Origin: Gammaproteobacteria bacterium
GTDB taxonomy: Bacteria; Pseudomonadota; Gammaproteobacteria; SZUA-140
DNA length: 35,807 bases
NCBI GenBank assembly: GCA_026982565.1
Contig: JALSGV010000184.1
Location: forward strand, 1-35,807
Direction: 5' to 3'
Shown: one piece after another, positions 6,674 to 34,798 of the stretch
How the letters are laid out: the number at the start of each line of letters is the position of its first letter
Numbering within the stretch: the first letter of the stretch is position 1
Position numbers and translations under genes: made by a program
The notes under the pieces: model-generated
The model's input: the letters and a program-made list of their open reading frames with translations, nothing else
The model's database searches: none
What the model was told of the DNA's origin: nothing

Positions 6674-6718
6674 TTGCCCCATTCCCAAAATGGGCATTAG
6701 AATGCCCTAAATGGGCAT
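6674..6718 (+). promoter_or_regulatory. Promoter and operator of the rightward defence operon
   Basis: TTGCCC (6674-6679) and TAGAAT (6698-6703) form a plausible sigma-70 promoter with an 18-bp spacer. The predicted start lies at about 6710, one base before the ATG at 6711, so the mRNA would be essentially leaderless. The 16-bp palindrome GGGCATTAGAATGCCC (6692-6707) covers the -10 box exactly. Copies of AATGGGCAT begin at 6689 and 6710, 21 bp apart (two helical turns), and a degenerate inverted copy GCCCCATT lies at 6676-6683. A winged-HTH repressor bound here would block its own promoter. That the first gene's product is this repressor is inference from position. Confidence 0.55.
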
Positions 6719-7127
6719 AACAACCTCCACCAAGAAAACGCCCCTTCACCGTCGAAAGACAGGTGGGCCTTCCCCAGATTTACCTCGCAATCTTGCCAAT
6801 GCCTTGTTTACCACCACCCAGCAGCGCGTGCTGGCATTGCTGTTTGGCCAGCCTGAGCGTAGTTTTTATGCTTCGGAGCTTATCGCACGAACACGGTCAG
6901 GTTCTGGTGCTGTGCAGCGTGAACTCAAACGTCTTGTGTCATACGGCTTGGTGACAGTCAGGCCCATCGGTAATCAGAAGCATTACCAGGCCAATCCCAA
7001 TTCGCCGGTATTCAATGAACTCCGCGGCTTGGTGAAGAAAGCCCTATGCGCGGAAAGCCTGAAACCTTCAAGCTCCAAACAGACACGGAGAAAAAGACTG
7101 GCTGTGAAAGATCGGGAAATGGAGTAA
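6711..7127 (+). CDS. Winged helix-turn-helix transcriptional regulator
   Basis: This 138-aa basic protein has a single winged-HTH domain. Helices fall around residues 35-82, with a SELIARTRSGSGAVQRELKRL recognition segment, followed by a wing ending GNQKHYQAN (87-95). The pattern resembles ArsR/MarR-like regulators, especially those found beside nucleotidyltransferase toxins, with a lysine- and arginine-rich C-terminus. It lacks metal-binding cysteines. The ATG at 6711 has no Shine-Dalgarno; the -10 box 7 nt upstream supports a leaderless start. Its stop (TAA, 7125-7127) lies 4 bp before the helicase gene, whose GGAG site overlaps the end of this gene. It is the likely autorepressor of the whole rightward operon, binding the palindrome over its own -10 (inference). 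Confidence 0.8.
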   Translation: MGITTSTKKTPLHRRKTGGPSPDLPRNLANALFTTTQQRVLALLFGQPERSFYASELIARTRSGSGAVQRELKRLVSYGLVTVRPIGNQKHYQANPNSPVFNELRGLVKKALCAESLKPSSSKQTRRKRLAVKDREME

Positions 7128-7131
7128 TCCC

Positions 7132-12332
<5,201 letters not shown>

Positions 12333-12336
<4 letters not shown>

Positions 12337-15143
12337 GCGAGGCTTTGAACTTTCAGCCAGGTAGCTTGATCCGGGCCCGCGGCCGGGAGTGGGTCATTCT
12401 CCCCGAGTCGCGGGATGAGGTGTTGGTTTTGAGACCCTTGGGGGGCGGGGAGCAGACCACGCGAATCTATGTCCCGCTGGAGCGTGAAGGCATCCGTGCT
12501 GCCAGCTTTCTGCCACCGGACCCTTCGATCACCGGCGGCCGCAGCGCCGGCTTGATCTTGAAGGATGCGCTTACCATGAAGCTGCGCGCCGGTGCTGGCC
12601 CCTTCCGAAGCTTCGGCAATATCGCCGTCGAGCCGCGGCCCTATCAGCTCGTGCCCCTGCTCATGGCTCTGCGCCTGCCGACGGTGCGGTTGCTCATCGC
12701 CGACGACGTGGGCATCGGCAAGACCATTGAGGCCGCCCTCATCGCCCGCGAACTCATGGACCGGGGCGAGATTCATCGCCTGACCGTTTTGTGTCCCCCG
12801 CATCTTTGCGAGCAGTGGCAGGAGGAACTAGCCGAACATTTCAACATCCAGGCCGAGATCGTGCGCACCAGCACCGCGGGCCGTCTCGAACGCGGCCTGC
12901 CGGCCGGCAAGTCCCTGTTCGAGGTCTATCCCTTCACCGTGGTCAGCCTCGACTACATCAAGTCCGACCGCCGCCGCGACGAGTTCCAGCGTGCCTGTCC
13001 AGGCTTCGTCATCGTCGATGAGGCCCACACCTGCACCCAGGGCCAAACCAGAGCCCGCCACCTGCGCCACCAGCTCCTGCGCGGGCTGGCCGATGATACC
13101 GAGCGGCACATGGTCTTCCTGACAGCCACTCCCCACAGTGGCGACGACGAGGCCTTCTACAACCTGCTTGGCTTGCTGGACAGCCAATTTCACCGCTTGG
13201 GCGAAGCGCAGGGTGATGAGCGCACCGCTCTGCGTGATCGCCTCGGCCGCCACTTTGTGCAGCGCCGCCGCCCCGATATCGAGGAATGGCAGGACAAGCG
13301 TTTGTTCCCCGATCGTCTGGTCCGGGAGACCACCTACCGCCTCACCGGCGACTGGGGCCGCATTTTCAGCGACGTGCTCGAATACGCCCGCGAGATGATC
13401 CGCAAAGGCGAGGGAATGGGGGCGCGCCAGCAACGCATGAACTGGTGGGCCGCGCTGGCCCTGTTGCGCTGTATCTCCTCCTCGCCAGCGGCCGCCGTGC
13501 AGGCACTGCGCACCCGTATCCTGGCCGAAGAGCAGGGAGATGCGTTAACCGAGGAAGACGAGCAAAGTATCGCCGCCGCCGTGTTCGATACAGAGGATGA
13601 CGATTTGAGTCAGGACGATACCGTCCCGGGAGCACTGACCAGTGATAATGCCGTCTATCTCGGTGTACTGCTGGAACAGGCGAAGGACCTGCACGGCCCG
13701 AGGGCAGACCCCAAGCTCAAGGCCTTGATCGAACAACTCGGCGAACTGGTGGCAAAAGGCTGTCATCCCGTGGTGTTTTGCCGTTATATTCCCACGGCCC
13801 ACTACGTGCAGGAGCATGTGGCCAGCGCGTTCAAAGAATACGAGGTTATCGCCGTCACCGGCGAACTCACCCCTGCCGAGCGGGAAGAAAAGGTCTACGC
13901 GTTGCAGAAAGCGCCCAAGCGCATTCTGGTTGCCACCGACTGCCTCTCCGAAGGCATCAATCTTCAGAAGGGCTTCGACGCCGTCGTTCACTACGACTTG
14001 TCCTGGAACCCCACCCGCCACGAACAACGCGAGGGTCGGGTGGACCGCTTTGGCCAGGAGGCGCCCGTAGTACGTGCCGTCATGCTCTATGGTGAGGATA
14101 ACCCGGTCGATGGCGCCGTGTTGCGGGTCATCCTGCGCAAGGCTGAGCGCATCCGCAAGGAGCTGGGCGTGCTGGTACCCATGCCCGAAGACCCCGACAA
14201 GGTCACCGAAGCTGTATTGCAGGCCGTCATGCTGGGCAAGGGGAACCTCGATCCGAAACAGCAGCAACTGGCCCTGACATTGGACGAGATCGATCACCGT
14301 CTGGAAGGCGAATGGGAGAGCCTGCGCGAGAAGGCCGAAAAGAGCCGTACCATCTTTGCCCAGCGCCGCCTGCGTCCCGAAGAGGTCATCCCCGAATGGC
14401 GGCGCGCCATGGCTGCTTTGGGCAGCGAGGAGGATGTCGCGCGTTTCGTCACCGGGGTCGCCCAGCGCCTCGGAGCGCCGCTGGAAAAACGCGGGAAGCA
14501 CTGGCGCCTGCCGGTGCGCCACCTGCCACCAAGCCTCAAGGAGCGTCTCGCCGTGCACGGCATCGAAGAATTTCTCGATCTGACCTTCCATTATCCACCA
14601 CCGGCTGAGGCGGTCTGGATTCACCGCAGCCATCCGCTGGTATCCGTGCTGGCCGACTATGTTACCGAGACCGCCCTCGACGGTGACCAGCCGGAAATCG
14701 CTGCCCGTGCCAGCGCCCTGTTTTCCAGCCGGGTCGAGGTACGCACCGTGCTTTGGCTGCTGCGGCTGCGGGTGCAGATCACCCTGACCCGCGAGATAGG
14801 CAGCCGCACGTTGCTGGCCGAAGAGGCACTTGCCGCCGTCAGTGAAGGCGACGCGCCGCCGCGCCTGCTTGGCCCCGCCGATGCCCGCGCTCTGCTCGCC
14901 GCCCAGGCCGAGCGCAACATGGAATCGGCCCTGCGCAGCCGCCATGTGCAACGGGCGCTGGACCGCTTGCCGGAACTGCAAAGTGCATTCGACAGCCTGG
15001 CACAAGAACGGGCCGAGGCCATCCTCGCCGACCATCGCCGGGTGCGCGATGCAGCCCAGGCCCGCGGCCGGTACGAGGTCGAACCCATGCTGCCCATGGA
15101 TGTGGTCGGGGTCTACGTCCTGATCCCGGCCCGGAGCATCTAG
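12333..15143 (+). CDS. drmD: DrmD-like SNF2 helicase
   Basis: This 936-aa protein is a SNF2-family ATPase whose sequence closely resembles, from memory, the class 1 DISARM helicase DrmD. Motif I is ADDVGIGKT (124-131 for the core), motif II DEAH (229-232), motif III TATPHSGD (from 264), and motif VI EQREGRVDRFGQ (from 564). The N-terminal region before motif I includes a short beta-rich GSLIRARGREWV segment typical of this group. After the motor, about 350 helical residues complete the expected length. In DISARM the DrmD-DrmMI pair defines class 1. The start overlaps the upstream stop by 4 nt (ATGA), and the methyltransferase begins 3 bp downstream, matching the usual DrmD-DrmMI order. It is expected to translocate on DNA as part of the restriction complex. 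Confidence 0.82.
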
Positions 15144-15146: not shown

Positions 15147-18100
15147 ATGACGCGGCGTCTCCAAAGCGGCACCGGCTTCGACGCCCTGCGCATCGAAGGC
15201 GGCCTGCTACCGGCCGAGTTCCTGCACACTGTGGCTGCCCTGCAGGCCCCGCAACAGTCGGAAGCCGACTATGGCGTTCCCCCCGGCCTCAAGCTACGCG
15301 ACGAGATTGGCCGCTACTGGCGTATCGCCCACAGCCTCTGGCAGCGCTATGCCGAGCAGGTGGAACGCACGGATACCGATGCCCGAAAGGCCGGTATCGA
15401 CGGCTGGCTCGAGCCGCTGCTCAAGGAGGTCCTGGGATTTGCCGACCTCCACGCCACGTCGGCGCGAGTGAAGGACGAGCGCCGGTTTCCGATCACCCAT
15501 CTCGCCTGCGACGACCAAGTCCCGCTGGTGCTCACCACCGCGGACCATCCCCTCGACAAGGGCGATGTGGCCTTTGGCGAGGAGGGCCGCAGGCGCTCGC
15601 CCCACGGCCTGGCCCAGGAGTATCTCAACGCCGAGGAGGCCTGCCTCTGGGCCATCGTGGCCAACGGCACCCACCTGCGCCTGCTGCGCGACAACCCCAG
15701 CCTCACCCGTCCGGCCTACCTGGAGGTGGATCTGGAACGGATGTTCCGCGAGGAACTCTACCCGGACTTTGCTGCCTTCTGGCTCCTGTGTCACGCCAGC
15801 CGCCTCTGCCCCCGCGAACCGGGCCGGCCGGAAAACTGCATCGTGGAGGGCTGGCGGGATCAGGCCCAGGAAACCGGCGAGCGCGCTCTGGAACGCCTGC
15901 GCGATGGCGTGGAACGGGCCCTTCGCGAGCTGGGCTCGGGTTTCCTGGAACACCCGAAGAACGGTACCCTGCGCCAGGCCATCGAAGAGGGCAGGCTGTC
16001 CGAGGATGCCTTCTTCCAGCAGCTCCTGCGCTTGATCTACCGCTTTCTGTTGCTGTTCACTGCCGAAGACCGCGACGTGCTCCATGCGCCGGGGGCAGCC
16101 CCCGAGGCCCGTGCGCTCTACCGGGACGGCTACAGCGCGGGCCGATTGCGCGAGTATGCGCTCTCCCGCGCCAGCTACGACCGCCACCACGACCTCTGGG
16201 AAGGCCTGAAAGTTACCTTCCATGCCTTGCAGACCGGCGCCGAGGCCCTGGGCCTGCCGCCCCTGGGCGGCCTGTTCGAAACCGGGCAGTGCCCCGACCT
16301 GGACGCCGCCCGCCTGCCCAACCGCCGCCTGCTCGCGGCCGTCCACGCCCTGGCCTGGTTTCGTGTCGGCGACGCCCTCACCCGCGTCAACTACCGGGAC
16401 ATGGACATCGAGGAACTGGGCAGCGTGTACGAGAGCCTGCTTGAGCTGGTGCCCGTGGTGCACGTAGACACCCACCCTTGGTGTTTCGGTTTCCTGGGCG
16501 ATCCGGAGCCCGGAGAGGAGCCGGTGCAAGGGAAGGGCCGCGGCAGTGCGCGCAAGACCACCGGCAGCTACTACACCCCCGACGTCCTCGTACAAGAACT
16601 CGTCAAATCCGCCCTGGACCCCGTCATCGAACGCACCCTGAAGGAACACGCCCAGAACCCCGTCGAGGCCCTGCTGGCGCTCAAGATCGTCGATCCCGCC
16701 GCCGGCTCCGGCCACTTTCTGCTCGCCGCCGCCCGCCGCCTCGCTGCCGAGGTGGCCCGTCTCCAGGCCGGCGCCGACCAGCCCACCGAGGCCGACTATC
16801 GTCATGCCCTGCGCGAGGTGGTGCGCAGATGCATCTACGGCGTGGACTTGAACCCCCTGGCCGTGGAGCTATGCAAGACCGCCCTCTGGCTGGAAACCGT
16901 GGAGCCCGGCAAGCCCCTGGGCTTCCTCGACGCCCACATCCGCTGCGGCAACGCCGTGGTCGGTGTGCTCGACCCCGAAATCACCAAGGACGGCATCCCC
17001 GACGCGGCCTACAAACCCCTGACGGGTGATGACAAAAAGGCCGCCAGTCAGTTGAAGAAGGCCAACAAGGCCGCCCGCGAGGCCGGCGTGCAGGCGCTCG
17101 ATTTCAGTGCCGCCGTCGCCGAGCCCGACCTCTGTGCCGTCGATCTCGACCACATGCCCGAGGACACGCCCGAGCAGATCGCCGACAAGCGTGCCGCCTG
17201 GGAAGCGGCGCAGACCAGTCACGCCTGCCGCCACCAGCGCCGGCTCGCCGACCTCTACACCGCCGCCTTCTTCGCCCCCAAGCGGCCCGATACCCTAGAC
17301 GCCGTACCCACCACCGCCGACCTGCAGGCTTGGAAGGACGGTGCCGAGGTGCGCTCTGCCGTGGCGCAAATGGCCGAGCGCCTCGCCGCGGAGCACCGCT
17401 TCTTCCACTGGACCATCGAGTTTCCGGAGGTCTTCGCCCGGGGCGGTTTCGACTGCGTGCTGGGCAATCCGCCGTGGGATGTTTCCCAATTGTCCGAGGA
17501 AGAATATTTTTCGGTTCACGCTCCCAGCATTGCCAGGCTGAAAGGGAACAAACGCAAGCAAGCCATCGCCGAGCTGGAACATGAAAACCCTGCACTGTGG
17601 TCACAATACCAGAGCGACAAACGGAAGATTGAATCCGCGAATCAGTTCGTGCGCGAAGCCGGTCGTTTTCCATTGACCGCCTTTGGCAAATTTAACCTTT
17701 ATGCGCTTTTCGCAGAGACTTTCCTCGCCCTTGTGAAGGAAAAGGGGCGGGCCGGCATCATCGTGCCCACCGGCATTGCCACCGACGACTCCACCAAGGC
17801 CTTCTTCGCCCACATCACCGATGGACAGCGGCTGGCCTCCCTGTACGATTTCGAGAACCGTGAAAAACTGTTCCCAGCTGTAGACAGTCGCATGAAGTTC
17901 AGCCTGCTCACCCTCGGCAGTGACTGCCCCGAGGCCGATTTCCTCTTCTTCGCCACCCGCATCACCCACCTGCGCGACCCACGCCGCCACTTCCGGCTCA
18001 CGGCCGCCGACATCGCCCTGCTCAACCCCAACACCCGCACCTGCCCCGTGTTCCGCAGCCGCCGCGATGCGGAGCTGACGGAGAAGATCTACCACCGGGT

Positions 18101-19112
18101 GCCCGCGCTCATCGACGAATCGAAGGACAAGGGGGGAAATCCCTGGCATGTCCAGTTCCGTCAAGGGTTGTTCAACATGACTTCCGACAGCGACCTCTTC
18201 ATGGAATCGACTGAACTAGAGGAAGCCGGCGCCACCCGGCAGGGTCCCAACTGGGTGTTGCCCAATGGCGAGGTCTTCGTGCCGCTGTACGAGGCCAAGA
18301 TGGTCCACCAGTTCGACCACCGCTGGGCCGAATACGAAGACGACGGCAAGACCACCCGCGACCTTCTTGACGCCGACCACGCCGACCCCACCCGCACCGC
18401 CCGCCCCCGCTACTGGGTGCCCCGCGCCGAAGTCGAATCCCGCCTTCAGGCCCGCGACTGGCAACGCGGCTGGCTGCTGGGCTGGCGGGACATCACCAAC
18501 GCCACCAACGAACGCACCGTCATTGCCGGCGTGGTGCCGAGGGTGGGGGTGGGGCACAAGTTCCCCCTATTTGCGGGATTTACCGATACTATAACCGTTG
18601 GGCAAATAGCTGCTTTCTATTCAAATTTGAATAGTCTTGTTCTTGATTATATTGCACGTCAAAAAGTAGGGGGAACTTCACTGACATATTTCTACCTGAA
18701 ACAGTTTCCGTTGCTTCCACCCGACGCCTACACCCAAACCGACCTCGACTTCATCGTCCCTCGCGTCCTCGAGCTGACCTACACCGCCGAGGATATGCGC
18801 CCCTGGGCCGAAGACCTGGGCTACCGCGGCGACCCCTTCCCCTGGGATCCCAGCCGCCGCCGCCAGCTCCGCGCCGAACTCGACGCCTACTACGCCCGCC
18901 TCTACGGCCTCACCCGCGACGAACTGCGCTACATCCTCGACCCCGCCGACGTCGAAGGCGACGACTACCCCTCCGAGACCTTCCGCGTCCTCAAGGAAAA
19001 GGAAATCCGCGAATTCGGCGACTACCGCACCCGCAACCTGGTGCTGGACGCCTGGGACCGGCTGGAGGAGGCTGGTGTTGGAGGGCGCGCTGTGAGACAG
19101 GTGCGCGCATGA
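15147..19112 (+). CDS. drmMI: DISARM class 1-type adenine DNA methyltransferase
   Basis: This 1321-aa protein is an Eco57I/type IIG-style N6-adenine methyltransferase without a visible nuclease motif. The SAM-binding motif I is DPAAGSGHF (516-524), preceded by TGSYYTP (472-478). The catalytic motif IV is NPPW (774-777). The long N-terminal part and C-terminal target-recognition region match the size of DrmMI in class 1 DISARM. Methylation of host sites would protect self DNA from the rest of the system. Two patches, about 17490-17720 and 18575-18715, are clearly more AT-rich than the rest, which is extremely C/G-rich at third positions; the second encodes the conserved FDYIARQKVGGT-like segment near the C-terminus. 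This suggests recombination within the gene. It starts 3 bp after drmD and overlaps the next gene by ATGA. Confidence 0.85.
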   Translation: MTRRLQSGTGFDALRIEGGLLPAEFLHTVAALQAPQQSEADYGVPPGLKLRDEIGRYWRIAHSLWQRYAEQVERTDTDARKAGIDGWLEPLLKEVLGFADLHATSARVKDERRFPITHLACDDQVPLVLTTADHPLDKGDVAFGEEGRRRSPHGLAQEYLNAEEACLWAIVANGTHLRLLRDNPSLTRPAYLEVDLERMFREELYPDFAAFWLLCHASRLCPREPGRPENCIVEGWRDQAQETGERALERLRDGVERALRELGSGFLEHPKNGTLRQAIEEGRLSEDAFFQQLLRLIYRFLLLFTAEDRDVLHAPGAAPEARALYRDGYSAGRLREYALSRASYDRHHDLWEGLKVTFHALQTGAEALGLPPLGGLFETGQCPDLDAARLPNRRLLAAVHALAWFRVGDALTRVNYRDMDIEELGSVYESLLELVPVVHVDTHPWCFGFLGDPEPGEEPVQGKGRGSARKTTGSYYTPDVLVQELVKSALDPVIERTLKEHAQNPVEALLALKIVDPAAGSGHFLLAAARRLAAEVARLQAGADQPTEADYRHALREVVRRCIYGVDLNPLAVELCKTALWLETVEPGKPLGFLDAHIRCGNAVVGVLDPEITKDGIPDAAYKPLTGDDKKAASQLKKANKAAREAGVQALDFSAAVAEPDLCAVDLDHMPEDTPEQIADKRAAWEAAQTSHACRHQRRLADLYTAAFFAPKRPDTLDAVPTTADLQAWKDGAEVRSAVAQMAERLAAEHRFFHWTIEFPEVFARGGFDCVLGNPPWDVSQLSEEEYFSVHAPSIARLKGNKRKQAIAELEHENPALWSQYQSDKRKIESANQFVREAGRFPLTAFGKFNLYALFAETFLALVKEKGRAGIIVPTGIATDDSTKAFFAHITDGQRLASLYDFENREKLFPAVDSRMKFSLLTLGSDCPEADFLFFATRITHLRDPRRHFRLTAADIALLNPNTRTCPVFRSRRDAELTEKIYHRVPALIDESKDKGGNPWHVQFRQGLFNMTSDSDLFMESTELEEAGATRQGPNWVLPNGEVFVPLYEAKMVHQFDHRWAEYEDDGKTTRDLLDADHADPTRTARPRYWVPRAEVESRLQARDWQRGWLLGWRDITNATNERTVIAGVVPRVGVGHKFPLFAGFTDTITVGQIAAFYSNLNSLVLDYIARQKVGGTSLTYFYLKQFPLLPPDAYTQTDLDFIVPRVLELTYTAEDMRPWAEDLGYRGDPFPWDPSRRRQLRAELDAYYARLYGLTRDELRYILDPADVEGDDYPSETFRVLKEKEIREFGDYRTRNLVLDAWDRLEEAGVGGRAVRQVRA

Positions 19113-25214: not shown

Positions 25215-28200
25215 ATGGACCAAGTGGAATGGTTGAACCAATTTCTGATCAAGAAGGTTGGCAACAGGCTCCCTGACGGGCGCCCGCTTTATGCCTATCG
25301 TTGCGATGAAAGGGAATACGAGACACTTGCGACTCTGGTGAGGGACATGCTTCAAGGCTTGGATGCAGGCAGGAGTTACAAGCGGTTTGCAGAGTTGTTC
25401 TGTCTTCTTGCCGCAGAGACCTGGCAAAGACGCTATGAAGGCGGACCTTGGGCCTACGATTTGATTTTTTCCGCGCTGGGGACGGGCAAGCCTGCGCAAA
25501 ACAAGATCACTGATTGGATTGAGCGGGGCCTGTCGTGGTGGAAGCGGGATGTGCTGATCTCTAAGAAGGGGCGGAAGCAGTTTTTGCTCACCATAGGCTG
25601 TGAAGGCGGAATTCCGAGAAAATTGCTTGTCAGGCAAGAGAGTCGCTTGACGGATTTTTTCCGTGAGTTGCTTACCGCAAGTCGGCGTATAAACTCTCTT
25701 TCTGAGATGGAATTGTTGGCCAGGAGAAATCACCATCGCCTGCCTCATAGTCTCAGACAGGATGTGATTTTCGACCTCAGTGCTCGCTTAGTTCAGGCGA
25801 TCAACGAGTTGCAACCACTTGTCCAGGGCGTGGATGACCCCATCGAGACGCTGGATCAGGCAAGGCCAGGTTGGCGGGATGTGTTGCCCCTGCCATTGGG
25901 TGACGAGGCCATAGAGCTGCTGCTGGGCAAGTTGGTGCGCCACGCGCAGAAAATCAGAGCCCGCGCTACTCAACAGTTGCACTGGCGGCGCCAATTGCTG
26001 GGTGTGGGACAGACTCCCATTCTGAAGGCCCGGCTTGTTCTGCCTGAATTCATAGAGAAAGACCAGGTTATACGGTGGCTCGGGGCCGCCGAGCCGCCGC
26101 GGCGCTTGCGTATGATGCTCTCTATAGAAGATCAGTCCTATAACGTGGCTGCATTGACACATATCAGACGCCACGAGGGGGAGGAAGGATACCGTTGCGA
26201 GTCCCTTGTTCGGAGGGGCTTATCCTTTGAGGGTCGGCTGGCCACTCGTCCCAGCTGTCTACTGCTCACTGATGGCGAGCATGACGTTGAGATCCACGTG
26301 CCAGGTAGCGAGGGCCTAGACGATCTGCCGTGGGTCTTTCGCGATCAAGAGGATGGGCGTGGGAGGCTGTTGCTTGGCGTGGGCTCGGTGCGCACACACC
26401 TGAGATCTGTCCTTGTGGCAGTGGCCGATGGAGATGAGATCGAAACGACGGGCGGATCGGCAAGCGTCGAGCTGGCTGGCATCATGGAACGGACAGGGCG
26501 CCGCCTGTACCGGATACAGGGTGGCGCGGCTGTAACCAGCGCCATGGGAGACGTGTACCGGATTCGATGCAATGCGCAAGTAGAGCGTGGTGGGGGATAC
26601 CGGATAAGTGGCAGGCAGCTTGCTGGCATTCTCAATGGCCCTGTTTATCTGGGCATGCCTCGCGTTGAGCATGTAGATGAGCAGGGGCAGGGGCGCCTGG
26701 ATCCTCAAGCCACCATGGAGTGGATGCCAGTTGCAGATGCTCAGCGAAACTGGTGCAGGGACACTGCTGCTTGCCTGGGGCAGATTTGGCTCCGGAGTCT
26801 GGATCCTGAGGATGGCAGTATTCTGTTCCGGCGCAGAGTCGAAGTGGTCCCTAAGGATTGCCGGGTGCGGATCAAGGTAGGCACGCGTAGCCAGCCGGGA
26901 TTCGTGGAGATTGCCGGTCTCCAGGGTGCAGAGCTTGCTACGCAAGCATCTGAATACCTGAACATAGAGCGCCAGGGAGATTGTGCCCGCCTTGTGCTGA
27001 GCGACGAGGTTCCGAATGATCTTGTCCAGGTGGAAGTGACTCTTGCGTGGCCTGACCGTTCACCGTTGACGCTGTGCCTGCCTGTACCCCGGGTTGGAGG
27101 CGCGTTTACCTATGGAGGGCTTCCCTTGCCGCGGTATACGCTGATTGCCCTAGACAGGCTGGGTGTCTATCGTGCCGAGGCGCGAGGGCCGGATCCTGGA
27201 CGTTACTACATCGAGGTAGATGTTACAGCGACGGGTGGTCTCGATCCTGATTTGCGCAAGCTTCTGTGGCTCAGGCACTCCCTGAAAAAGAGGGGGGATG
27301 GCGTGCATGAGGCTATCCTGCATCCGATCCAGGAACCAGTAGGTGAACTCATGGCCATGGCTGCAGATACGGATGTCAGGGCCAGGCTTGTACTCTACGA
27401 CGAGGCCGGCCGCGATCTGCACCGAATCCAGGTGGCACGCTATGACATGATGCTGGAGCCTGATCGCGAGAATAATTGCGTATGTCTTGCCGGAGAGGCG
27501 CTCCGTAAACTGGGTGAGGGTTGGCAGGACAGGGTCACGGTGGAGATGCTGCCACTCTGGCGGCCCGATGAAGAGCCAAGAAAGCTGAGTGCTTTGGAAG
27601 AATTTGCCGGTACGGCCTGGGCTATTCCGGATGATCTGGAGCCCGGCCCCTGGTGGATCATAGGGCGAGACGCGGGCTGGACGCGGTTCAAGCCCCTGTT
27701 GTGGACCATCAACCGAGAAGACGAAGCCAGACCTGAAGTCCATAGTGGGGAAGTGGGGCTTGCGAATGCCGTGTGTGAGCCGGATGTGGAATCCCGCGTG
27801 CAGCTTATGGATGATCTTATCAGGTGCCTCTGCGAAGATATGCACCACCCTGATTGGGATGGCATAAAGAGCTATCTGCGGCTGACGAAGGAGCATCCCG
27901 CCCATACCCTCGAGATCATGAATGCCATGGTCAGGCATCCCGAATCACTGGTACACCTTCTCATGCGATCCATAGATCAAGACGACCTCGAGCAGGCCTG
28001 GAAGCTAGAACGCGAGATGCCCTTTGCCTGGTGGCTAATACCTGCCGCCAAGTGGCAGCTGGTTGCGCAGAGATATTTCTATTCTCTCGTTGATTCCCTT
28101 GCCGACCTGGAAGATAGAAAACAGATCGTTGAGAAAGTATTTTTAGATACGATTGAGCGGCTTGGGGCGCAGGCCCATTGGTTACAGGTGCTGTGTGACT

Positions 28201-28613
28201 GGATCCAAGAGTCCGTCTTTCCAGGTATGGAGCCCAGGACTCCCGAGTGGAAAATCGTGCGTAGCAATCCCCAAGGCTTGCTGTGCCAGGTGCCCCTGCT
28301 CGTGGAGGAAATGAGGCGGGAACTCATGGAGCGAATTGAACCAGGGATAAAGTGGCCTGAAGGCATGAGAGTGAGGGAGCGGTCGCAATGCCTGCCGGAG
28401 GGTTTAAGGTTTAGCGACTATGGTTACCGGCGCGACGTGTTCTGCGCCCCCTTCGTGGCCGCCATGTACTTTCTTCAGGAAGAGGAATGTCCGCGCTCAC
28501 AGGTCCTGGAGTTACGGCGCTTGCGGGCCTTCGACCAGGAATGGTTTGATCACAGTTTTGCCCTGATGATCTGTCAAGGTCTTGCCAGCGTATTGCCAGG
28601 GGACAAAAAATGA
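25215..28613 (+). CDS. druH: DruH-like / STY4851-ECs_5259-type protein
   Basis: This protein has 1132 aa from the chosen start. The N-terminus (LPDGRPLYAYRCDEREYETL) recalls the STY4851/ECs_5259 family, large proteins encoded just before a giant DUF1998 helicase. Size and position match DruH of type III Druantia, whose two genes are druH and druE. No nuclease, ATPase or transmembrane motif can be read; the middle looks beta-rich and the C-terminal third helical. The frame is open from 25089, which would overlap the previous gene by 88 bp. ATG 25215 is preferred because GGGAGG lies 5 bp upstream; ATG 25191 is also possible. The 38-bp spacer before it is the only real break in the operon. The stop overlaps the druE-like start by ATGA. 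The family call is from recall, not a search. Confidence 0.65.
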   Translation: MDQVEWLNQFLIKKVGNRLPDGRPLYAYRCDEREYETLATLVRDMLQGLDAGRSYKRFAELFCLLAAETWQRRYEGGPWAYDLIFSALGTGKPAQNKITDWIERGLSWWKRDVLISKKGRKQFLLTIGCEGGIPRKLLVRQESRLTDFFRELLTASRRINSLSEMELLARRNHHRLPHSLRQDVIFDLSARLVQAINELQPLVQGVDDPIETLDQARPGWRDVLPLPLGDEAIELLLGKLVRHAQKIRARATQQLHWRRQLLGVGQTPILKARLVLPEFIEKDQVIRWLGAAEPPRRLRMMLSIEDQSYNVAALTHIRRHEGEEGYRCESLVRRGLSFEGRLATRPSCLLLTDGEHDVEIHVPGSEGLDDLPWVFRDQEDGRGRLLLGVGSVRTHLRSVLVAVADGDEIETTGGSASVELAGIMERTGRRLYRIQGGAAVTSAMGDVYRIRCNAQVERGGGYRISGRQLAGILNGPVYLGMPRVEHVDEQGQGRLDPQATMEWMPVADAQRNWCRDTAACLGQIWLRSLDPEDGSILFRRRVEVVPKDCRVRIKVGTRSQPGFVEIAGLQGAELATQASEYLNIERQGDCARLVLSDEVPNDLVQVEVTLAWPDRSPLTLCLPVPRVGGAFTYGGLPLPRYTLIALDRLGVYRAEARGPDPGRYYIEVDVTATGGLDPDLRKLLWLRHSLKKRGDGVHEAILHPIQEPVGELMAMAADTDVRARLVLYDEAGRDLHRIQVARYDMMLEPDRENNCVCLAGEALRKLGEGWQDRVTVEMLPLWRPDEEPRKLSALEEFAGTAWAIPDDLEPGPWWIIGRDAGWTRFKPLLWTINREDEARPEVHSGEVGLANAVCEPDVESRVQLMDDLIRCLCEDMHHPDWDGIKSYLRLTKEHPAHTLEIMNAMVRHPESLVHLLMRSIDQDDLEQAWKLEREMPFAWWLIPAAKWQLVAQRYFYSLVDSLADLEDRKQIVEKVFLDTIERLGAQAHWLQVLCDWIQESVFPGMEPRTPEWKIVRSNPQGLLCQVPLLVEEMRRELMERIEPGIKWPEGMRVRERSQCLPEGLRFSDYGYRRDVFCAPFVAAMYFLQEEECPRSQVLELRRLRAFDQEWFDHSFALMICQGLASVLPGDKK

Positions 28614-31600
28614 GCATGCGTTATGGAGAAATCATTCAACATCTGCAGCGCAGTGCCACACGGGCTATCCTGGGGCTTCAGGGAGTCCGCAACGAGGCTT
28701 TGAGGGAGTACCTGCAGGATATTTACCAGCGCTTTCCTGGTAAGCCGGGGAGTCTTCTCGCTGACCCCGTGTTCGAAGCTACTTTCGGATGGAAGGAAGC
28801 CGATGTGGATATGGCAGGCCTCTCCGGGGACCTGCTGCATCCATCGCTGGTCCAGGCGCTTGCCTCGCCACCGCGCGCACTCGAGGAGGAATATGCTTTT
28901 CCCCTGAACCGCAGGCCCTACAGACACCAGCTTGAGGCTTGGCGGGCCCTGATCGAAGGTAAGCCGCCACGTTCGGTATTGGTAAGCAGCGGAACGGGCT
29001 CAGGCAAGACAGAGTGCTTTCTTATTCCCATCCTCGATGATCTGGCGAGGGCTTCCGATGGAGGGAAACGAAGGCTCACGGGTGTGCAGGCCTTGTTTTT
29101 ATATCCTCTCAATGCCCTCATCAAGAGCCAGAAGGATCGCCTGGCAGCTTGGACCGAACCTTTCGGTGGTACCTTGCGCTGGTGTCTCTACAACCGGGAT
29201 ACGCAGGAACATGCTCCCCCTCAGAGGCAGCAGGAGTTCCGTAGCGAGGTCAAGGGGCGGGATGTATTGCGGGCTGATCCACCGCCCATCCTGGTGACCA
29301 ATGCCACAATGCTGGAATATATGTTAGTGAGACGAGTGGATCGTCCGATCATCGATCAATCACAGGGGAAGCTGAAATGGATCGTGATCGACGAGGCCCA
29401 CAGTTATCTGGGTTCACAGGCCGCCGAGCTGGCTTTGCTGCTGAGACGGGTATTGCTGGCCTTTGGTTGTACACCCGGTGAGGTGCACTTTGTTGCCACC
29501 TCAGCCACGATCGGAGGGGAGCGCGGTCGAAGCGAGTTACAGGCATTTCTCGCCGACATCGCTGGGGTGGATACCAGCCGCGTGTCTGTGATCCTGGGCG
29601 AGCGGGAGGTGCCACCCCTGCCTGAACCACTGGCGGAACATCATGAACCTCTCCCGCCATCTAAACAACTCCAAGAAATGGATCCCAGATCCAGGTTTAA
29701 GGTGCTGGCCATGAATCCTGTGGCGAGAAGGATATGTGCGCGCCTGGCCCAGGGATCTATACGGCTTTCGGACGTGGCTGCTTATCTCGGTGGCGATGGG
29801 GGTGACGCACAGCATAACCGTGCGCTCGAGTTACTGGAACTCTGCAGTGACGCGTGCGGTGAATCGGGAGAACCTTTTCTACCCTTGCGGGCCCATCTGT
29901 TTCAGCGGGTGCAGCCCGGTTTGTGGAGCTGTGCTAACGGAGAATGTAGCGGCAGGAAAGGTACCGCACTCGAAGACAAGGCATGGCATTTCGGGGCTGT
30001 ATTCAGTGGGCGCAGGGAAAAATGCCCTCATTGTGGTTTTCCTGTCTTTGAAGTACTTCAATGCAATCTGTGTGGTCAGGAAGTCCTCGAGGCTGAGGAG
30101 GTGCATGTTGATGCCTCCGTATTGCTTAGCCCCCGTCGCGAAACTCAGGAAGAGGATGAATTTCTGCTTGATCTTGATGTAGCGGAGATGTCGGATGATG
30201 AAACTCTGGAAGGTCAAGGGGTATCCTCGCAGGGGTTGAAAAGGCTGCTGGTGCCTGCAACTGGGGCCCAGTGTCAGGAACGCCTGTCGCGAGAAGGCCT
30301 GCTCAATGGCGAGGGGAGCGTCATTGACGTGGGTTTGCAGATTCCGGATGAAGACGGCCGCCTGACCTGTCCCTGTTGCGGAGCACGGGAAGGGAAATCC
30401 AGTGATGACACCTTCTTTCGCAGCATGCGCCTGGGCGCGCCATTCCTGTTGCAGACTGCCATCCCTGAACTGTTGAGACATCTGCCACCTATGGCCACTA
30501 GGGTCAGCCAGCCGCCAGTACCACTCGAAGGGAGGCGATTACTGGCTTTTACCGATAGTAGACAGGGAACGGCGCGGATTGCTGCAAGACTCCAGCAGGA
30601 GTCAGAACGCAATTATGTGCGTAGCTTGCTCTATCATCGCCTTGCCCAATTGGGTGGTGAACAGGATCACGCTGCAATAGCAGCGCTTCAGAATAAAGTG
30701 GAGGAACTGGAGCGCTATGCTTCGCAATCCCCAGTACTTCGGGAAGTCTATGAGGGAAAGAAGAAGGAATTAGATGCCTTGTTGGCGCAAAGCCCAGGCG
30801 TGATGAGTTGGGATGATGCCCTGAATTACCTCCTCGGGAATATAGGGTTCATAAATCACTTGTTGCCTAGCCTGAGGGAATTGATTACCTCTCGCTTAGA
30901 CGATCGCCAATTGGCAATGTTGTGCCTATGGCGGGAGTTCATGCTTAGGCCAAGGCGCCAGTTCTCAGTCGAAGGGCTGGGGCTGATCCGGCTGGCGTAT
31001 CCAGCAATAGAACGCCTCAAGGGTGTGCCGCCAGTACTTATGCGCTACAGCGTCGGCGAGTCAGAATGGCATGATCTGCTGCGCGTCGTGCTCGATATCC
31101 ACGTGCGCGGCTGGCGTGCCGTGAGTATACCCCAGGATATCCTCCGCTGGACCGGAAACATCATTGTGACGCGCGTGATTCTGCCACCTGGCAAGGAAAA
31201 GACTGATAGGACACAGCAGGCTTGGCCTAGTATTTACCGCCAGGGCGGTCACAGGTCGGGGCTCGTGCGCCTTATTGCCCATGCCTTTCATTTGGACCCA
31301 GAGGCGTCCCAGAGCCGCGCGGAGATTGAGGAGATCCTCCTGGCGATATGGGATGCGCTCAAAAATGTTCTTACTGTGGATAACAGGGGCAACTATGTAT
31401 TGGACATGCCGCGGCAAGTATCGATCGCTGCGGTGCACAAGGCGTGGCTCTGCCCGGTTACCCGACGCCTACTGCCTGTGACCTTTCGAGGGATAACCCC
31501 TTATTTGACGCCGACAGCGGACGGGCGGCTAGCCCGTTGCATAGAGGTCGAGATGCCGCGTCTGCCTGAGCCGTTCTGGGGTGGGGACCGCGATGCGGGT

Positions 31601-34600
31601 TTGGCATGGCTGGAGTCCGATGAGCGGGTTATTCATTTACGGCATCTGGGTTGCTGGGGTGACCTCAATGACCGTATCGCGGCATTTGCCGATTATTTCC
31701 GGGCTGTGGAGCACTCTGCGCAGATCGACAGCCGATTGTTGACACAGCGTGAAGAGATGTTCAAGGAAGGTAGGATCAATTTCCTGAGCTGCTCCACCAC
31801 CATGGAAATGGGTGTCGACATCGGCGGACTTACTGCCGTTGCGATGAACAATGTCCCGCCCCATCCCGCCAACTTTCTGCAGCGGGCGGGCCGTGCGGGC
31901 AGGCGTGGTGAGCAGCGCGCCCTCAGCTTTACGTTGTGCAAGAGCAATCCCCAGGGTGAGGCTGTTTTTGGAAATCCTCTCTGGGCCTTTACGACCACAT
32001 TACGCGTTCCGCAGGTATCCATGCAAAGCCGGAGAATCGTGCAGCGCCATGTCAATTCGCTCATGCTGTCCCGGTTCTTTGCGCAGTGTATTGATGAGGA
32101 TGTCTATAGGCTGCAATGTGGCTGGTTCTTTCTGGGTTCTGATGATGGCCGGATTTCATCTCCAGCCAGCAGATTCATAGCATGGTGCAGATCGCAAGCA
32201 ATAGATGATGACAACGAGAATCTGCTTGTCCTGTTGGTGAGAGGCAGCGTGCTCGATGGGGTGCCGCTGGAGCAGATTTTCGAGGAGGCAGCCCTGGATA
32301 TGGAGAGGGTGCGTGCTGCATGGAGGGCCGAGTACGATGCTCTGGAGCGCAACCTCGAGGAGCTGAAGACCACAAGGGGCAACAGCAAACCTGAAAAGGC
32401 CGTCAGTATCCAGCGGGATAGGCTTTCCAGGGAATACTTATTGTCGGAACTGGCCACCCGCGGCTTTCTGCCCGGATATGGTTTTCCTAACGGCGTGGTC
32501 AATCTTGTCACTACGACCCTCGATGATCTGGGGTCCAAGTCGCGCAATGGCGAGGAGCGCGAGGGGAATGCGGCCATGAGTCATGGATTCCCTTCGAGGC
32601 CCATCCATCAGGCACTGAGAGACTACGCCCCCGGCATGGATATCACCCTGGATGGCCGTGTATTCCATTGTGGTGGTGTCACTCTCAACTGGCACCTGCC
32701 TGCGCATCTGGAGGCAGGACAGGAGATCCAGGCGATCTCGTGGATATGGCGCTGCGTAGAATGCAATGGGTCTGGCACGCGCTTGTATATGCCCGATCGT
32801 TGTCCGCTGTGCGGTGCCAGTGAGCTGAAGGTTTATGAATATCTCCAGCCTGCCGGCTTTGCTGTGGACATAAGAAGCAGACCACATAACAACATCAACA
32901 TCCAAAAATATGTGCCGGTTTGCGACCCATTCATATCAGCGCAGGGCGCGGATTGGATGTCCCTGCCTGATCCTGCGCTGGGGCGCTACCGCCACAGTAT
33001 GAATGGCCATCTGTTCCACCGCAGTGAAGGTGTTCATGGCAAGGGCTATTCGCTGTGTTTGCGCTGCGGACGCGCGGACTCCACCACCGAGGACGGCATG
33101 ACTCCTGATACACTCAAACGCCACAAGCGACTGCGGGGTGGACGTAATGATGATAATGAAAAATACTGCCCGGGCTATGAGGAAGGTGCCGTCAAGGATG
33201 GCATTCTCCTTGGAGCGTCCCTTTATACCGATGTCTTTGAACTCCAGCTCAAGCATCCATCATCTTCAAAATACGCCAGCCGGGTGCAGGCCTATTCCAT
33301 AGCCGTGGCCTTGCGTCGTGCGTTGTGTAGGTCGATCGGCGTTGAAGAAGACGAGATCGGTATCCATACCGCCAAGGAGCCAGGTCCGTCGGGTGATGAG
33401 CGTGTGTATTCTATCTATCTTTACGATAATGCCACGGGAGGCGCGGGTTACGTGGCATTGATGGGCACGGCCCTGGATGTCCTGCTGACTGATGTCACGC
33501 GCCTGCTCGCATGCCAATGTGATAAGGCTTGTCAGTCTTGTCTACTGATGCATGATACTCAATACCATGTGGATTTACTGGATCGCAAGGCCGCGCTCAA
33601 ATTCTTGGATGAGGATTTCCTTACCGCACTGCGTCTCCCAGATTCGCTGTTGGCATTCGGGAAGGAGACGCGCCTCGAGCTGGAACCTTTGGCGCTTGCG
33701 CTACAGCGTGAACTCCAGCGCCACAGTGCTGAGGAGATCAGATTTTACCTGGGTGGAAAGGCGGAATCCTGGGAGCCTTTATTGTGGTACCGTCATTTCG
33801 ACATGGCCAGATTCAGCAGGATGAATATGCGTACCACCTTCATTGTCCAGGGAGACGTTTTGGAAGACCTTGAGAATTCACAGGCTGATGAAATGGCTGC
33901 CATTGTTGAGGTATCGGGAGGACAGTTATGGCGCGTCAAGAAGCCAGCTGTTGCCCAGAACGGCATGCCGATGGTGTTAGAGGTTGTTGGGAAAGATTCG
34001 ATATTGCGCTGGGCGTCCACTGTGGAGGATGCTGCCATTCCATCACCGGCGTGGGGGGGTGGAAGTCAGGGTGCTCGATATGTTTTGGGGGAAGCGGATA
34101 GGCAAGGTGCGCAATATCCGGACGACGTAAGCCAGGTGCCGCCATCACAATTGAGAAGATCGTATCCGGGGCTTATCGAGCTGGTCATTAGGAATGAGTT
34201 AAATGGGGAGGCTTGCTCATTTGGAGAGCGGGCATGCAGGTTCATTTCCGACAGTGACGATACGGTCAGGGAATATGCCCTACGAGGCAACCTCATCTCG
34301 AGCATTGTCTATAGCGATAGATACCTGCTATCACCTCTGACCCTTGTTCTTCTCCGGTCCTTTTTGGGTGAAATTGCCGGCAAAATGGGGTGTGTAGACC
34401 ATACCACGCAAATCGAGGTCGTGACAGAGAAGCAATCTATCAATGAACCCCGAACTCCATATCAGATCTTCCATAATTGGCAGGATGGTAACGCAAGGCG
34501 CAAAGTGTTTTACGAACTTTTCGGAGATATCGGTCCCTGTAAGCTGGAAGAGCGTGATAAGTCGCAAGTACCACATGCGCGTCTACTTACGGTGAGTTGG

Positions 34601-34798
34601 GCTGATGGTGCCGAATGGATCCTGCGCCTCGACCAGGGGCTAGGCTATTGGCGAGTGAAGCATGGCGAGAAAGCCTCCTTTCGTTTTGATGTCGATGGCA
34701 AGAGACAGGCACAGGTTCTGCGCGAGCTGAATCTCAAGGTCCTGGGGCAAAGCCAGCATTTTGCGACCTATTGGTATAGCGGTATGAGAATGCCCTGA
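28610..34798 (+). CDS. druE: DruE-like giant DUF1998 helicase
   Basis: This 2062-aa protein is a superfamily 2 helicase of the DUF1998 type and matches Druantia DruE in size and order of parts. Motif I is GTGSGKT (128-134), motif II DEAH (261-264), motif III TSAT, motif V MEMGVDIG (from 1065) and motif VI QRAGRAGRRG (from 1091). Zinc-type cysteine clusters occur at 472/475 with 485/488, 587/589/590, and 1382/1385 with 1398/1401. The DUF1998 part has NATGGAGY (from 1607) and cysteines 1635, 1637, 1641 and 1644. About 400 further residues have no recognised domain. DruE is the one protein shared by all Druantia types. Codon use includes more ATA and AGA/AGG than in the methyltransferase. It is the last gene of the operon, and its start overlaps the DruH-like stop. 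Confidence 0.8.
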   Translation: MSMRYGEIIQHLQRSATRAILGLQGVRNEALREYLQDIYQRFPGKPGSLLADPVFEATFGWKEADVDMAGLSGDLLHPSLVQALASPPRALEEEYAFPLNRRPYRHQLEAWRALIEGKPPRSVLVSSGTGSGKTECFLIPILDDLARASDGGKRRLTGVQALFLYPLNALIKSQKDRLAAWTEPFGGTLRWCLYNRDTQEHAPPQRQQEFRSEVKGRDVLRADPPPILVTNATMLEYMLVRRVDRPIIDQSQGKLKWIVIDEAHSYLGSQAAELALLLRRVLLAFGCTPGEVHFVATSATIGGERGRSELQAFLADIAGVDTSRVSVILGEREVPPLPEPLAEHHEPLPPSKQLQEMDPRSRFKVLAMNPVARRICARLAQGSIRLSDVAAYLGGDGGDAQHNRALELLELCSDACGESGEPFLPLRAHLFQRVQPGLWSCANGECSGRKGTALEDKAWHFGAVFSGRREKCPHCGFPVFEVLQCNLCGQEVLEAEEVHVDASVLLSPRRETQEEDEFLLDLDVAEMSDDETLEGQGVSSQGLKRLLVPATGAQCQERLSREGLLNGEGSVIDVGLQIPDEDGRLTCPCCGAREGKSSDDTFFRSMRLGAPFLLQTAIPELLRHLPPMATRVSQPPVPLEGRRLLAFTDSRQGTARIAARLQQESERNYVRSLLYHRLAQLGGEQDHAAIAALQNKVEELERYASQSPVLREVYEGKKKELDALLAQSPGVMSWDDALNYLLGNIGFINHLLPSLRELITSRLDDRQLAMLCLWREFMLRPRRQFSVEGLGLIRLAYPAIERLKGVPPVLMRYSVGESEWHDLLRVVLDIHVRGWRAVSIPQDILRWTGNIIVTRVILPPGKEKTDRTQQAWPSIYRQGGHRSGLVRLIAHAFHLDPEASQSRAEIEEILLAIWDALKNVLTVDNRGNYVLDMPRQVSIAAVHKAWLCPVTRRLLPVTFRGITPYLTPTADGRLARCIEVEMPRLPEPFWGGDRDAGLAWLESDERVIHLRHLGCWGDLNDRIAAFADYFRAVEHSAQIDSRLLTQREEMFKEGRINFLSCSTTMEMGVDIGGLTAVAMNNVPPHPANFLQRAGRAGRRGEQRALSFTLCKSNPQGEAVFGNPLWAFTTTLRVPQVSMQSRRIVQRHVNSLMLSRFFAQCIDEDVYRLQCGWFFLGSDDGRISSPASRFIAWCRSQAIDDDNENLLVLLVRGSVLDGVPLEQIFEEAALDMERVRAAWRAEYDALERNLEELKTTRGNSKPEKAVSIQRDRLSREYLLSELATRGFLPGYGFPNGVVNLVTTTLDDLGSKSRNGEEREGNAAMSHGFPSRPIHQALRDYAPGMDITLDGRVFHCGGVTLNWHLPAHLEAGQEIQAISWIWRCVECNGSGTRLYMPDRCPLCGASELKVYEYLQPAGFAVDIRSRPHNNINIQKYVPVCDPFISAQGADWMSLPDPALGRYRHSMNGHLFHRSEGVHGKGYSLCLRCGRADSTTEDGMTPDTLKRHKRLRGGRNDDNEKYCPGYEEGAVKDGILLGASLYTDVFELQLKHPSSSKYASRVQAYSIAVALRRALCRSIGVEEDEIGIHTAKEPGPSGDERVYSIYLYDNATGGAGYVALMGTALDVLLTDVTRLLACQCDKACQSCLLMHDTQYHVDLLDRKAALKFLDEDFLTALRLPDSLLAFGKETRLELEPLALALQRELQRHSAEEIRFYLGGKAESWEPLLWYRHFDMARFSRMNMRTTFIVQGDVLEDLENSQADEMAAIVEVSGGQLWRVKKPAVAQNGMPMVLEVVGKDSILRWASTVEDAAIPSPAWGGGSQGARYVLGEADRQGAQYPDDVSQVPPSQLRRSYPGLIELVIRNELNGEACSFGERACRFISDSDDTVREYALRGNLISSIVYSDRYLLSPLTLVLLRSFLGEIAGKMGCVDHTTQIEVVTEKQSINEPRTPYQIFHNWQDGNARRKVFYELFGDIGPCKLEERDKSQVPHARLLTVSWADGAEWILRLDQGLGYWRVKHGEKASFRFDVDGKRQAQVLRELNLKVLGQSQHFATYWYSGMRMP

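What the first reader, a model, noticed from the sequence alone, without database searches (positions are those of the whole stretch)
6711..34798. One operon joins a class 1 DISARM-like core to a type III Druantia-like pair
Seen: seven large genes and a regulator run in one direction with ATGA overlaps or gaps of 3-4 bp, broken only by a 38-bp gap. Known: DrmD plus DrmMI mark class 1 DISARM, and DruH plus DruE make type III Druantia. Inference: here both sets, plus a helicase-nuclease and a 902-aa linker protein, are built into a single transcription unit, so they may act as one composite system rather than neighbours in an island.
Basis: partly seen in the sequence, partly recalled or inferred. 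Interest (0 to 1): 0.85.

Follow-up and report, generated by a model that had tools for sequence, protein, structure and literature searches.

The report
Two phage-defence systems in one operon
This stretch of bacterial DNA strings two already described anti-phage systems, ARMADA and Druantia, together with two extra genes and one switch gene into a single 28,000-letter gene train, an arrangement I saw in no other genome examined but whose main parts are known.

Summary
The operon is real: seven large same-strand genes plus a winged-helix gene, with ATGA overlaps, 3-4 bp gaps and one 38-bp gap. The Druantia half is correctly named: DruH and DruE match type III models and solved proteins. The "class 1 DISARM core" is not DISARM; the YprA-SNF2-methyltransferase trio fits ARMADA Type I (preprint PMC12458937, which reports synergy of ARMADA Type II with Druantia III). 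Conservation argues against one composite machine. The nearest trio (74-75% identity) lacks the other genes. ARMADA lay in the DNA held around DruE in 1 of 79 loci, and that was Type II. In a 369-genome class sample only this genome had both halves. Relatives of the 902-aa protein lie apart from this window's genes. New: the joint, and its switch. The first gene keeps the DNA-binding part of a PDC-M05A HTH-nucleotidyltransferase and two tandem 21-bp operators, seen nowhere else in the 2.64-Mb assembly at up to one mismatch; such palindromes lie at the start of 5 of 6 plasmid relatives. Most likely: two stackable systems under one repressor.

The parts
6681..6722 (+). tandem operator: two 21-bp units (6681-6701, 6702-6722), each with a CCC-N5-GGG palindrome, overlapping a -10-like hexamer and the start codon of the first gene
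   Evidence: the repeat finder; promoter-like site 6674-6703; motif only here in the window and, at up to 1 mismatch, in the 2.64-Mb assembly; palindromes around the start codon of 5 of 6 plasmid relatives of the HTH gene, tandem at exactly 21 bp in 3
6711..7127 (+). winged-helix regulator (138 aa), the DNA-binding part of a PDC-M05A HTH-nucleotidyltransferase without its nucleotidyltransferase domain
   Evidence: PADLOC PDC-M05A 1.6e-35, profile positions 5-92 of 201; a full-length plasmid relative matches 6-197 and has an NTP_transf_2 domain
7132..12336 (+). ArmC-like YprA-family helicase (1734 aa) with MZB zinc domain and Vsr-like C-terminal nuclease motif
   Evidence: Pfam DEAD, Helicase_C, MZB; DUF559 E 0.0013, below cut-off, at the C terminus; tree; 75% identical to the YprA of a trio in G222
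12333..15143 (+). ArmA-like SNF2/RapA helicase (936 aa)
   Evidence: PADLOC DpdE PDLC02853 691 bits, DrmD 297 bits; NCBIfam DrmD 341 bits, below its 610 cut-off
15147..19112 (+). ArmB-like PglX/DrmMI-type adenine methyltransferase (1321 aa); NPPW and DPAAGSGHF motifs present
   Evidence: PADLOC DrmMI 258 bits; Pfam Eco57I; motifs
19109..22471 (+). SF1 helicase (AAA_11/AAA_12) fused to a Vsr-like MTES_1575 nuclease (1120 aa), called HelNuc here; not ArmD
   Evidence: Pfam; no BLAST match to Klebsiella ArmD at E up to 1
22468..25176 (+). 902-aa protein (p902): TPR-like helical body with a conserved C-terminal alpha/beta domain; no family
   Evidence: no PADLOC or NCBIfam match; weak TPR hits; relatives aligned
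25215..28613 (+). DruH, Druantia type III (1132 aa)
   Evidence: NCBIfam NF038336 523 bits, cut-off 150; solved DruH 9tud 1.2e-56
28610..34798 (+). DruE, Druantia type III YprA-family helicase-nuclease (2062 aa)
   Evidence: PADLOC DruE3 2214 bits over residues 4-2057; solved chain 9tu7, listed as DEAD/DEAH box helicase, 1231 bits, which I take to be the solved DruE

Best explanation
A defence operon built by stacking. A self-sufficient ARMADA Type I trio (YprA helicase with Vsr-like nuclease, SNF2 helicase, PglX-like methyltransferase), a helicase-nuclease gene, a TPR protein gene and a self-sufficient Druantia III pair were joined head to tail behind a winged-helix repressor taken from a PDC-M05 two-gene cassette. 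The repressor binds two tandem 21-bp operators over its own promoter and probably holds the whole 28-kb transcript at a low level. Once expressed, ARMADA would act on incoming DNA, its methyltransferase helping to tell self from foreign, while DruH senses a phage structural protein and DruE attacks replication intermediates with 3' single strands. The halves act in parallel and add up or synergise. Shown here: identities, presence of motifs, gene order, operator conservation, lack of conservation of the joint in the samples searched. From papers: ARMADA and Druantia activities and the synergy of ARMADA II with Druantia III. Inferred: a single transcript, repression, the role of the methyltransferase, and synergy in this host.
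For: Druantia III identity. Trio in ARMADA Type I order, with the YprA in a clade of nine ARMADA-I-like rows (support 100/100). The trio occurs without the rest at 74-75% identity in G222; DruHE, HelNuc relatives and p902 relatives occur without this window's other genes. Operator. GC3 differs between the ARMADA end (0.70-0.81) and the p902-DruH-DruE end (0.60-0.66). Synergy of ARMADA II with Druantia III: PMC12458937.
Against: No expression data. The codon change is a gradient: HelNuc and p902 correlate at 0.87, as high as pairs within a half, and no operon gene is an outlier against the host: correlations to host usage are 0.84-0.95, host ORFs of at least 300 aa have median 0.89 and minimum 0.60 (n = 36). 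So composition does not show foreign origin. The ATGA and short-gap joints could instead mean long co-evolution of the whole unit. The tree used my own ARMADA-I-like rows, not the published reference, and one of them (G371) has another gene order. In DruH 2 of 5 published ATP-contact residues are kept in a 25%-identity alignment.
Confidence: 0.65

Rival explanations
1. One integrated machine: the ARMADA enzymes, the helicase-nuclease, the 902-aa protein and DruHE form a single composite immune system in which the 902-aa TPR protein is the adaptor between the halves.
For: Unbroken co-direction with ATGA overlaps at the MTase-HelNuc and HelNuc-p902 joints. One dedicated operator. p902 shares codon usage with DruH and DruE (0.87-0.88). 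In the class sample 4 genomes have HelNuc-like hits above 350 bits (G000, G025, G087, G371) and 2 of them (G000, G371) also have an ARMADA-like YprA, in G371 on another contig; small numbers.
Against: p902 in 0 of 79 DruE loci; its 5 relatives in the class sample have none of this window's genes in the stretches read (one contig is only 6.8 kb). HelNuc relatives in G025, G087 and G371 lie without the window's other genes. No ARMADA Type I next to DruHE among 79 genome loci or 9 viewed DruH plasmid loci (by annotation); of 25 viral-contig loci the 2 with DruH have no ARMADA and those with ARMADA have no DruH.
Confidence: 0.12
2. Plain neighbours in a defence island, with separate internal promoters, or an assembly join; no shared control.
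For: Fragmented MAG; a 38-bp gap before DruH; compositional gradient; a mechanical same-strand ORF of at least 100 aa ends within 60 bp upstream of DruH in 10 of 67 scored loci, so a close upstream gene is not by itself special. Promoter-like sites in 6400-22500: 5 against 2.9 expected.
Against: ATGA overlaps at two of the three new joints are unlikely from an assembly error; promoter-like sites in 22300-35807 are fewer than in shuffles (4 against 6.4).
Confidence: 0.2
3. A class 1 DISARM variant fused to Druantia.
For: Relatives of DrmD (297 bits in PADLOC) and DrmMI (258 bits).
Against: No DrmB or DrmC among the listed matches (lists are capped at 25 families a protein; the C-terminal pieces of P0002 and DruE, scanned apart, match DruE models only). 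DrmA models match only the helicase motor of P0002 (NCBIfam 18 bits against a cut-off of 950); the YprA is closer to DruE3 (339 bits) than to DrmA (54 bits).
Confidence: 0.02

Closest known systems
ARMADA Type I (Bell et al. 2025 preprint, PMC12458937)
   Same: YprA helicase first, then BrxHII/DrmD-like SNF2 and PglX-like methyltransferase; C-terminal Vsr-like nuclease motif in the YprA; no RelE-GajB gene
   Different: here the trio is followed, with ATGA coupling, by a helicase-nuclease, a 902-aa protein and DruHE, and preceded by a PDC-M05A-type wHTH with its operator
ARMADA Type II + Druantia III (+ Zorya II) islands of E. coli (same preprint)
   Same: an ARMADA and a Druantia III with co-directional genes; reported synergy
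   Different: ARMADA is Type II with ArmD there, and in the Klebsiella plasmid and Enterobacter copies that I saw it lies downstream of DruHE; here it is Type I, lies upstream, and is joined through two extra genes
Druantia type III
   Same: adjacent DruH-DruE with ATGA overlap, full-length matches to both
   Different: DruHE forms the 3' end of a longer operon
PADLOC candidate PDC-M05 (HTH-nucleotidyltransferase + 143-aa partner)
   Same: the wHTH domain and the palindromes at the start codon
   Different: nucleotidyltransferase domain and partner gene are missing; the wHTH heads a defence operon instead
DISARM class 1
   Same: relatives of DrmD and DrmMI
   Different: core genes drmA, drmB and drmC not found

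Membership tests
ARMADA Type I | YprA-family helicase with DUF1998/MZB zinc domain | tested here: met
   Pfam DEAD, Helicase_C, MZB in P0002
ARMADA Type I | BrxHII/RapA-like SNF2 and PglX-like methyltransferase in the same operon | tested here: met
   motifs
ARMADA Type I | gene order YprA, SNF2, methyltransferase | tested here: met
   same order in L002, L005, L167
ARMADA Type I | C-terminal active Vsr nuclease in the YprA protein | tested here: inconclusive
   DUF559 match at 1668-1715, E 0.0013, below Pfam cut-off; RPDF..IYIDG motif present
ARMADA Type I | YprA protein falls in the Type I clade | tested here: inconclusive
   clade of nine rows at 100/100, apart from Klebsiella ArmC; the published Type I reference was not in the tree, and Klebsiella ArmC and G166 are long branches that the program warns of
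ARMADA Type I | BrxA-like insertion after RecA1 | not tested
   no structure made of P0002
ARMADA Type II | ArmD: RelE-GajB-like UvrD helicase | tested here: not met
   P0005 is AAA_11/AAA_12 + MTES_1575; Klebsiella ArmD is UvrD/GajB and does not match P0005
DISARM class 1 | core drmA, drmB, drmC (definition recalled) | tested here: not met
   no curated DISARM cut-off reached; no DrmB or DrmC among listed matches (lists capped at 25; for the C-terminal pieces)
Druantia type III | DruH | tested here: met
   NF038336 523 bits, cut-off 150; 9tud
Druantia type III | DruE of subtype 3, adjacent to DruH | tested here: met
   PDLC00037 2214 bits; 28610 overlaps the DruH stop
Druantia type III | two C-terminal PLD domains in DruE, the last active | tested here: inconclusive
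   last 362 residues match the DruE3 model to position 2052; the motif H-x-K-x4-D was not found; H1989 sits where the consensus of 8 DruE has H-x-R; fold not modelled
conserved composite ARMADA-Druantia system | same gene order in unrelated genomes | tested here: not met
   0 of 79 DruE loci with ARMADA Type I alongside (61 of 79 hold a full 10 kb upstream); 0 of 368 other class genomes with both halves
PDC-M05 | HTH-nucleotidyltransferase plus M05B partner | tested here: not met
   only profile positions 5-92 of 201 matched; no M05B among the listed matches

The most novel reading that the evidence does not exclude
A 28-kb composite immune system in which a repressor captured from an HTH-nucleotidyltransferase cassette (lacking that cassette's catalytic domain and partner gene) switches on ARMADA Type I and Druantia III together, and the 902-aa TPR protein physically couples the phage sensor DruH to the ARMADA modification-restriction enzymes.
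Probability: 0.1. Interest if true: 0.75.

Novelty: new variant of a known kind. Interest (0 to 1): 0.42.

Why it matters
It suggests that large helicase-based defence systems are stackable: whole systems can be placed behind one repressor so that they are expressed together, which bears on how synergy between ARMADA and Druantia could be fixed by selection. The operator gives a testable handle on how such costly operons are kept quiet. It also points to a likely annotation trap: YprA-SNF2-methyltransferase trios can be read as DISARM or Dpd because of model names.

Tried and rejected
DISARM reading: rejected, no drmB or drmC seen and drmA models fit only the motor. HelNuc as ArmD: rejected. 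p902 as a regular Druantia or ARMADA subunit: not supported; no match in plasmids, viral contigs, solved structures or NCBIfam. I thought of DUF2325 for its C-terminal domain from memory; hmmscan gave no such match. Structure models of p902 (mean pLDDT 50.9) and of its last 126 residues (58.8) are too poor, so no fold search was run. A tRNA 3'-end-like string at 34902-34922 as an integration site: no second copy in the own genome at up to 2 mismatches or in 38 relatives at up to 1, so dropped. Single-protein viral scans for p902 and DruH found nothing. A row label in the tree ("Competibacter_L066") is my error: L066 is a Phycisphaerales MAG; the result is unaffected.

Limits. Of the 79, 61 hold a full 10 kb upstream of DruE and 18 are cut by the contig; in a layout identical to the window's, 10 kb would show p902, HelNuc and only the last 0.5 kb of ArmB. 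Among the 79, SNF2-like hits without the other two ARMADA genes are in L061, L065 (184 bits), L069, L084, L092 and L105, and weak partial HelNuc hits (37-110 bits) in L031, L036, L038, L042 and L060. In the class searches only up to 2 candidates a genome were scored. Of 19 DruH plasmid records I viewed 9; of 258 plasmid records with a P0002 match I viewed 4. Of 79 DruE loci, 77 genomes could be searched for the ARMADA YprA; 4 had it: about 276 kb away in one, on another contig in three (the DruE contigs, held over those coordinates or too short, show no YprA). L089's Type II ArmC did not pass the 1e-38 limit used there, so Type II is undercounted in those two calls. One search scored 67 of 79 loci. 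Supplementary files of papers could not be read.
Full report
What is there. The window is one complete contig (C184) of an unnamed 2.64-Mb assembly. Terminator-like sites are not enriched over shuffles. Promoter-like sites number 5 against 2.9 expected in 6400-22500 and 4 against 6.4 in 22300-35807.

Identity of the parts. The last two genes are Druantia type III. DruH scores 523 bits against an NCBIfam cut-off of 150 and matches the solved DruH 9tud. DruE matches the PADLOC DruE3 model over residues 4-2057 at 2214 bits and the solved chain 9tu7, listed as a DEAD/DEAH box helicase. I compared 19 DruE and 5 DruH positions named in PMC13192584 (abstract, two Results sections and found passages read) by way of a Klebsiella copy, whose residue agrees with the paper at all but one position (97). 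In DruE 14 of 19 are identical to the Klebsiella residue; of the 5 that differ, three are in the C-terminal nuclease region. In DruH 2 of 5 ATP contacts are identical, in a 25%-identity alignment. The nuclease chemistry of this copy is therefore not shown.

The first three large genes are a YprA-family helicase, an SNF2 helicase and a PglX/DrmMI-type methyltransferase. DISARM is defined by drmA, drmB and drmC (recalled); no drmB or drmC was seen. The match lists are capped at 25 families, so I scanned the C-terminal pieces of both YprA proteins apart: they match only DruE models. The preprint PMC12458937 describes this trio as ARMADA and, for Type I, the order seen here (read: abstract, Introduction, whole Results and Discussion, Conclusions, one Methods section, figure legends and passages). 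The window YprA falls in a clade of nine ARMADA-I-like rows at 100/100, apart from DruE and from the Type II ArmC of a Klebsiella plasmid. Klebsiella ArmC sits on a long branch, the published Type I reference was not included, and one of the nine (G371) has another gene order. ArmD, the Type II hallmark, is absent: the fourth large gene is an AAA_11/AAA_12 helicase with a Vsr-like nuclease and does not match ArmD.

The 902-aa protein has no family beyond weak TPR signals. Relatives exist in 5 of the 368 other genomes of a class sample; none of this window's other proteins is matched in the stretches read around them, though one contig was only 6.8 kb long. By eye their neighbours look like housekeeping genes (not tested). 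The C-terminal 120 residues carry an invariant pattern (GG-E-Q, GW--NW, VVLM--RT--GR) and a low-confidence alternating strand-helix prediction.

Are the halves one system? (a) The closest relative of the trio, in G222, is 75/74/75% identical over the three genes and is followed by an AAA ATPase gene, not by HelNuc, p902 or DruHE. Other Type I-like trios with some downstream DNA held (G249, G034, Roseomonas, A. caldus, D. radiodurans, two viral contigs) also show none of them; in G249 and D. radiodurans the methyltransferase is split, and in A. caldus the trio is interrupted by an IS. (b) Of 79 DruE loci from one genome per species, 1 has ARMADA in the DNA held (up to 10 kb a side), an Enterobacter locus with Type II downstream; six others have an SNF2-like hit without the other two genes, the strongest in L065 (184 bits). 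(c) In one 369-genome class sample, long ARMADA-I-like YprA hits (E up to 2e-201) are in 9 genomes and DruH in 12; only the window's own genome has both. With 8 and 11 other carriers, chance alone would give about 0.24 joint genomes, so this shows independence, not avoidance. (d) Of 77 DruE genomes searched, 4 have such a YprA: one about 276 kb away, three on other contigs. (e) Of 19 plasmid records with DruH, 9 were viewed: a Klebsiella plasmid has DruHE followed by ARMADA II; in the other eight no ARMADA trio is annotated within 15-18 kb. DruH-DruE coupling itself is general (gap of 30 bp or less in 60 of 67 scored loci), and a same-strand ORF ends within 60 bp upstream of DruH in 10 of 67. 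Within this sample the joint is an occasional stacking event, not a conserved architecture.

Composition agrees with stacking but does not prove it. GC3 falls from 0.70-0.81 in the trio and 0.76 in HelNuc to 0.66, 0.62 and 0.60 in p902, DruH and DruE. Codon-usage correlations are 0.85-0.92 among the first four, 0.87-0.88 among the last three and 0.54-0.87 between. The change is graded, and as a control no operon gene falls outside the spread of host ORFs (0.84-0.95 to host usage; 36 host ORFs of at least 300 aa: median 0.89, minimum 0.60).

The switch. Just before and over the first start codon lie two 21-bp units in tandem, each with a CCC-N5-GGG palindrome. The 15-base consensus with up to one mismatch occurs twice in the 2.64-Mb assembly, both here. 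The first gene matches only the DNA-binding part of PDC-M05A. Plasmid relatives are about 200 aa long and are annotated as nucleotidyltransferases or a putative regulator; three that were scanned have the nucleotidyltransferase domain, and the Sulfuricella pair matches PDC-M05A and PDC-M05B nearly full length. CCC-N5-GGG palindromes lie around the start codon in 5 of 6 relatives, in 3 as a pair exactly 21 bp apart. In 2000 dinucleotide shuffles a single site arose in 0.4-16% of the seven regions' shuffles, a pair at 21 bp never, so the pairs are strong evidence and the single sites (L228, L229) weaker. The Comamonas relative, the most distant, has none. The protein very likely still binds this operator and represses its own operon. 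That it controls all eight genes is inferred from the coupling.

Mechanism. From papers: ARMADA II needs all four of its genes, acts without killing the cell, and synergises with Druantia III against a subset of phages (PMC12458937). DruH is a likely sensor and DruE a helicase-nuclease that loads on 3' single strands (PMC13192584). A mycobacterial study reports that DruH-DruE contact is essential and that a phage tail protein activates the system (PMC13316683, abstract and outline only), whereas PMC13192584 saw no stable DruH-DruE complex. For this operon I infer parallel action of two systems expressed together.

Novelty. Three searches of the paper library and the read parts of PMC12458937 showed ARMADA II with Druantia III, but no statement of an ARMADA I-Druantia III operon or of this operator. 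Supplementary tables could not be read, so the pairing may be listed there. I rate it a new variant of a known kind.

Noticed in passing
window 347-6560, - strand: A divergent three-gene set: SNF2 helicase (PDC-M27C 107 bits), PLD protein (ZacB 55 bits) and a 444-aa protein without matches; a further candidate defence cassette that shares the 150-bp intergenic region with the operon.
   Followed up: partly
window 35199-35290, + strand: Two CRISPR-like repeats 61 bp apart (CCCCGCACCCGCGGGGATGAACCG and a degenerate copy read by eye), type I-E-like from memory; one match in the window at up to 3 mismatches; no cas gene among the large ORFs identified in the window.
   Followed up: partly
window 34902-34922: String like a tRNA 3' end about 100 bp after the DruE stop, a possible integration scar; no second copy in the assembly or in 38 relatives.
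   Followed up: yes
window 35572-35591 and 35728-35747, and around: Dispersed repeats at the contig end (GTGTGGCGACACGGGCAAGG twice, and variants of 'cgggcgcagtgagaaatgacagg'); possibly why the assembly breaks there. Tandem Repeats Finder reports none.
   Followed up: partly
window 12333-15143; L167 7771-10587: PADLOC model PDLC02853, named DpdE, fits two ARMADA Type I SNF2 proteins nearly full length (691 and 731 bits) and a Type II ArmA poorly (135 bits): the model name may cause ARMADA to be reported as Dpd.
   Followed up: partly
L226, L227, L230 (plasmid PDC-M05 type cassettes): Tandem CCC-N5-GGG palindromes 21 bp apart around the start codon of HTH-nucleotidyltransferase genes, apparently the operator of this family.
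   Followed up: partly
L014, L016, L017, L020, L021: A family of roughly 870-930-aa proteins (relatives of p902) with an invariant C-terminal motif and no Pfam domain beyond weak TPR.
   Followed up: partly
L173 (G371), L181 (G166): ARMADA-like loci with SNF2 and methyltransferase before the YprA gene and extra genes between; G371 also has a HelNuc relative on another contig.
   Followed up: partly
L205-L207, L214, L217, L220, L223 (IMG/VR contigs): ARMADA Type II-like and Type I-like operons on contigs classed as viral, with no DruH match beside them in the DNA held.
   Followed up: partly
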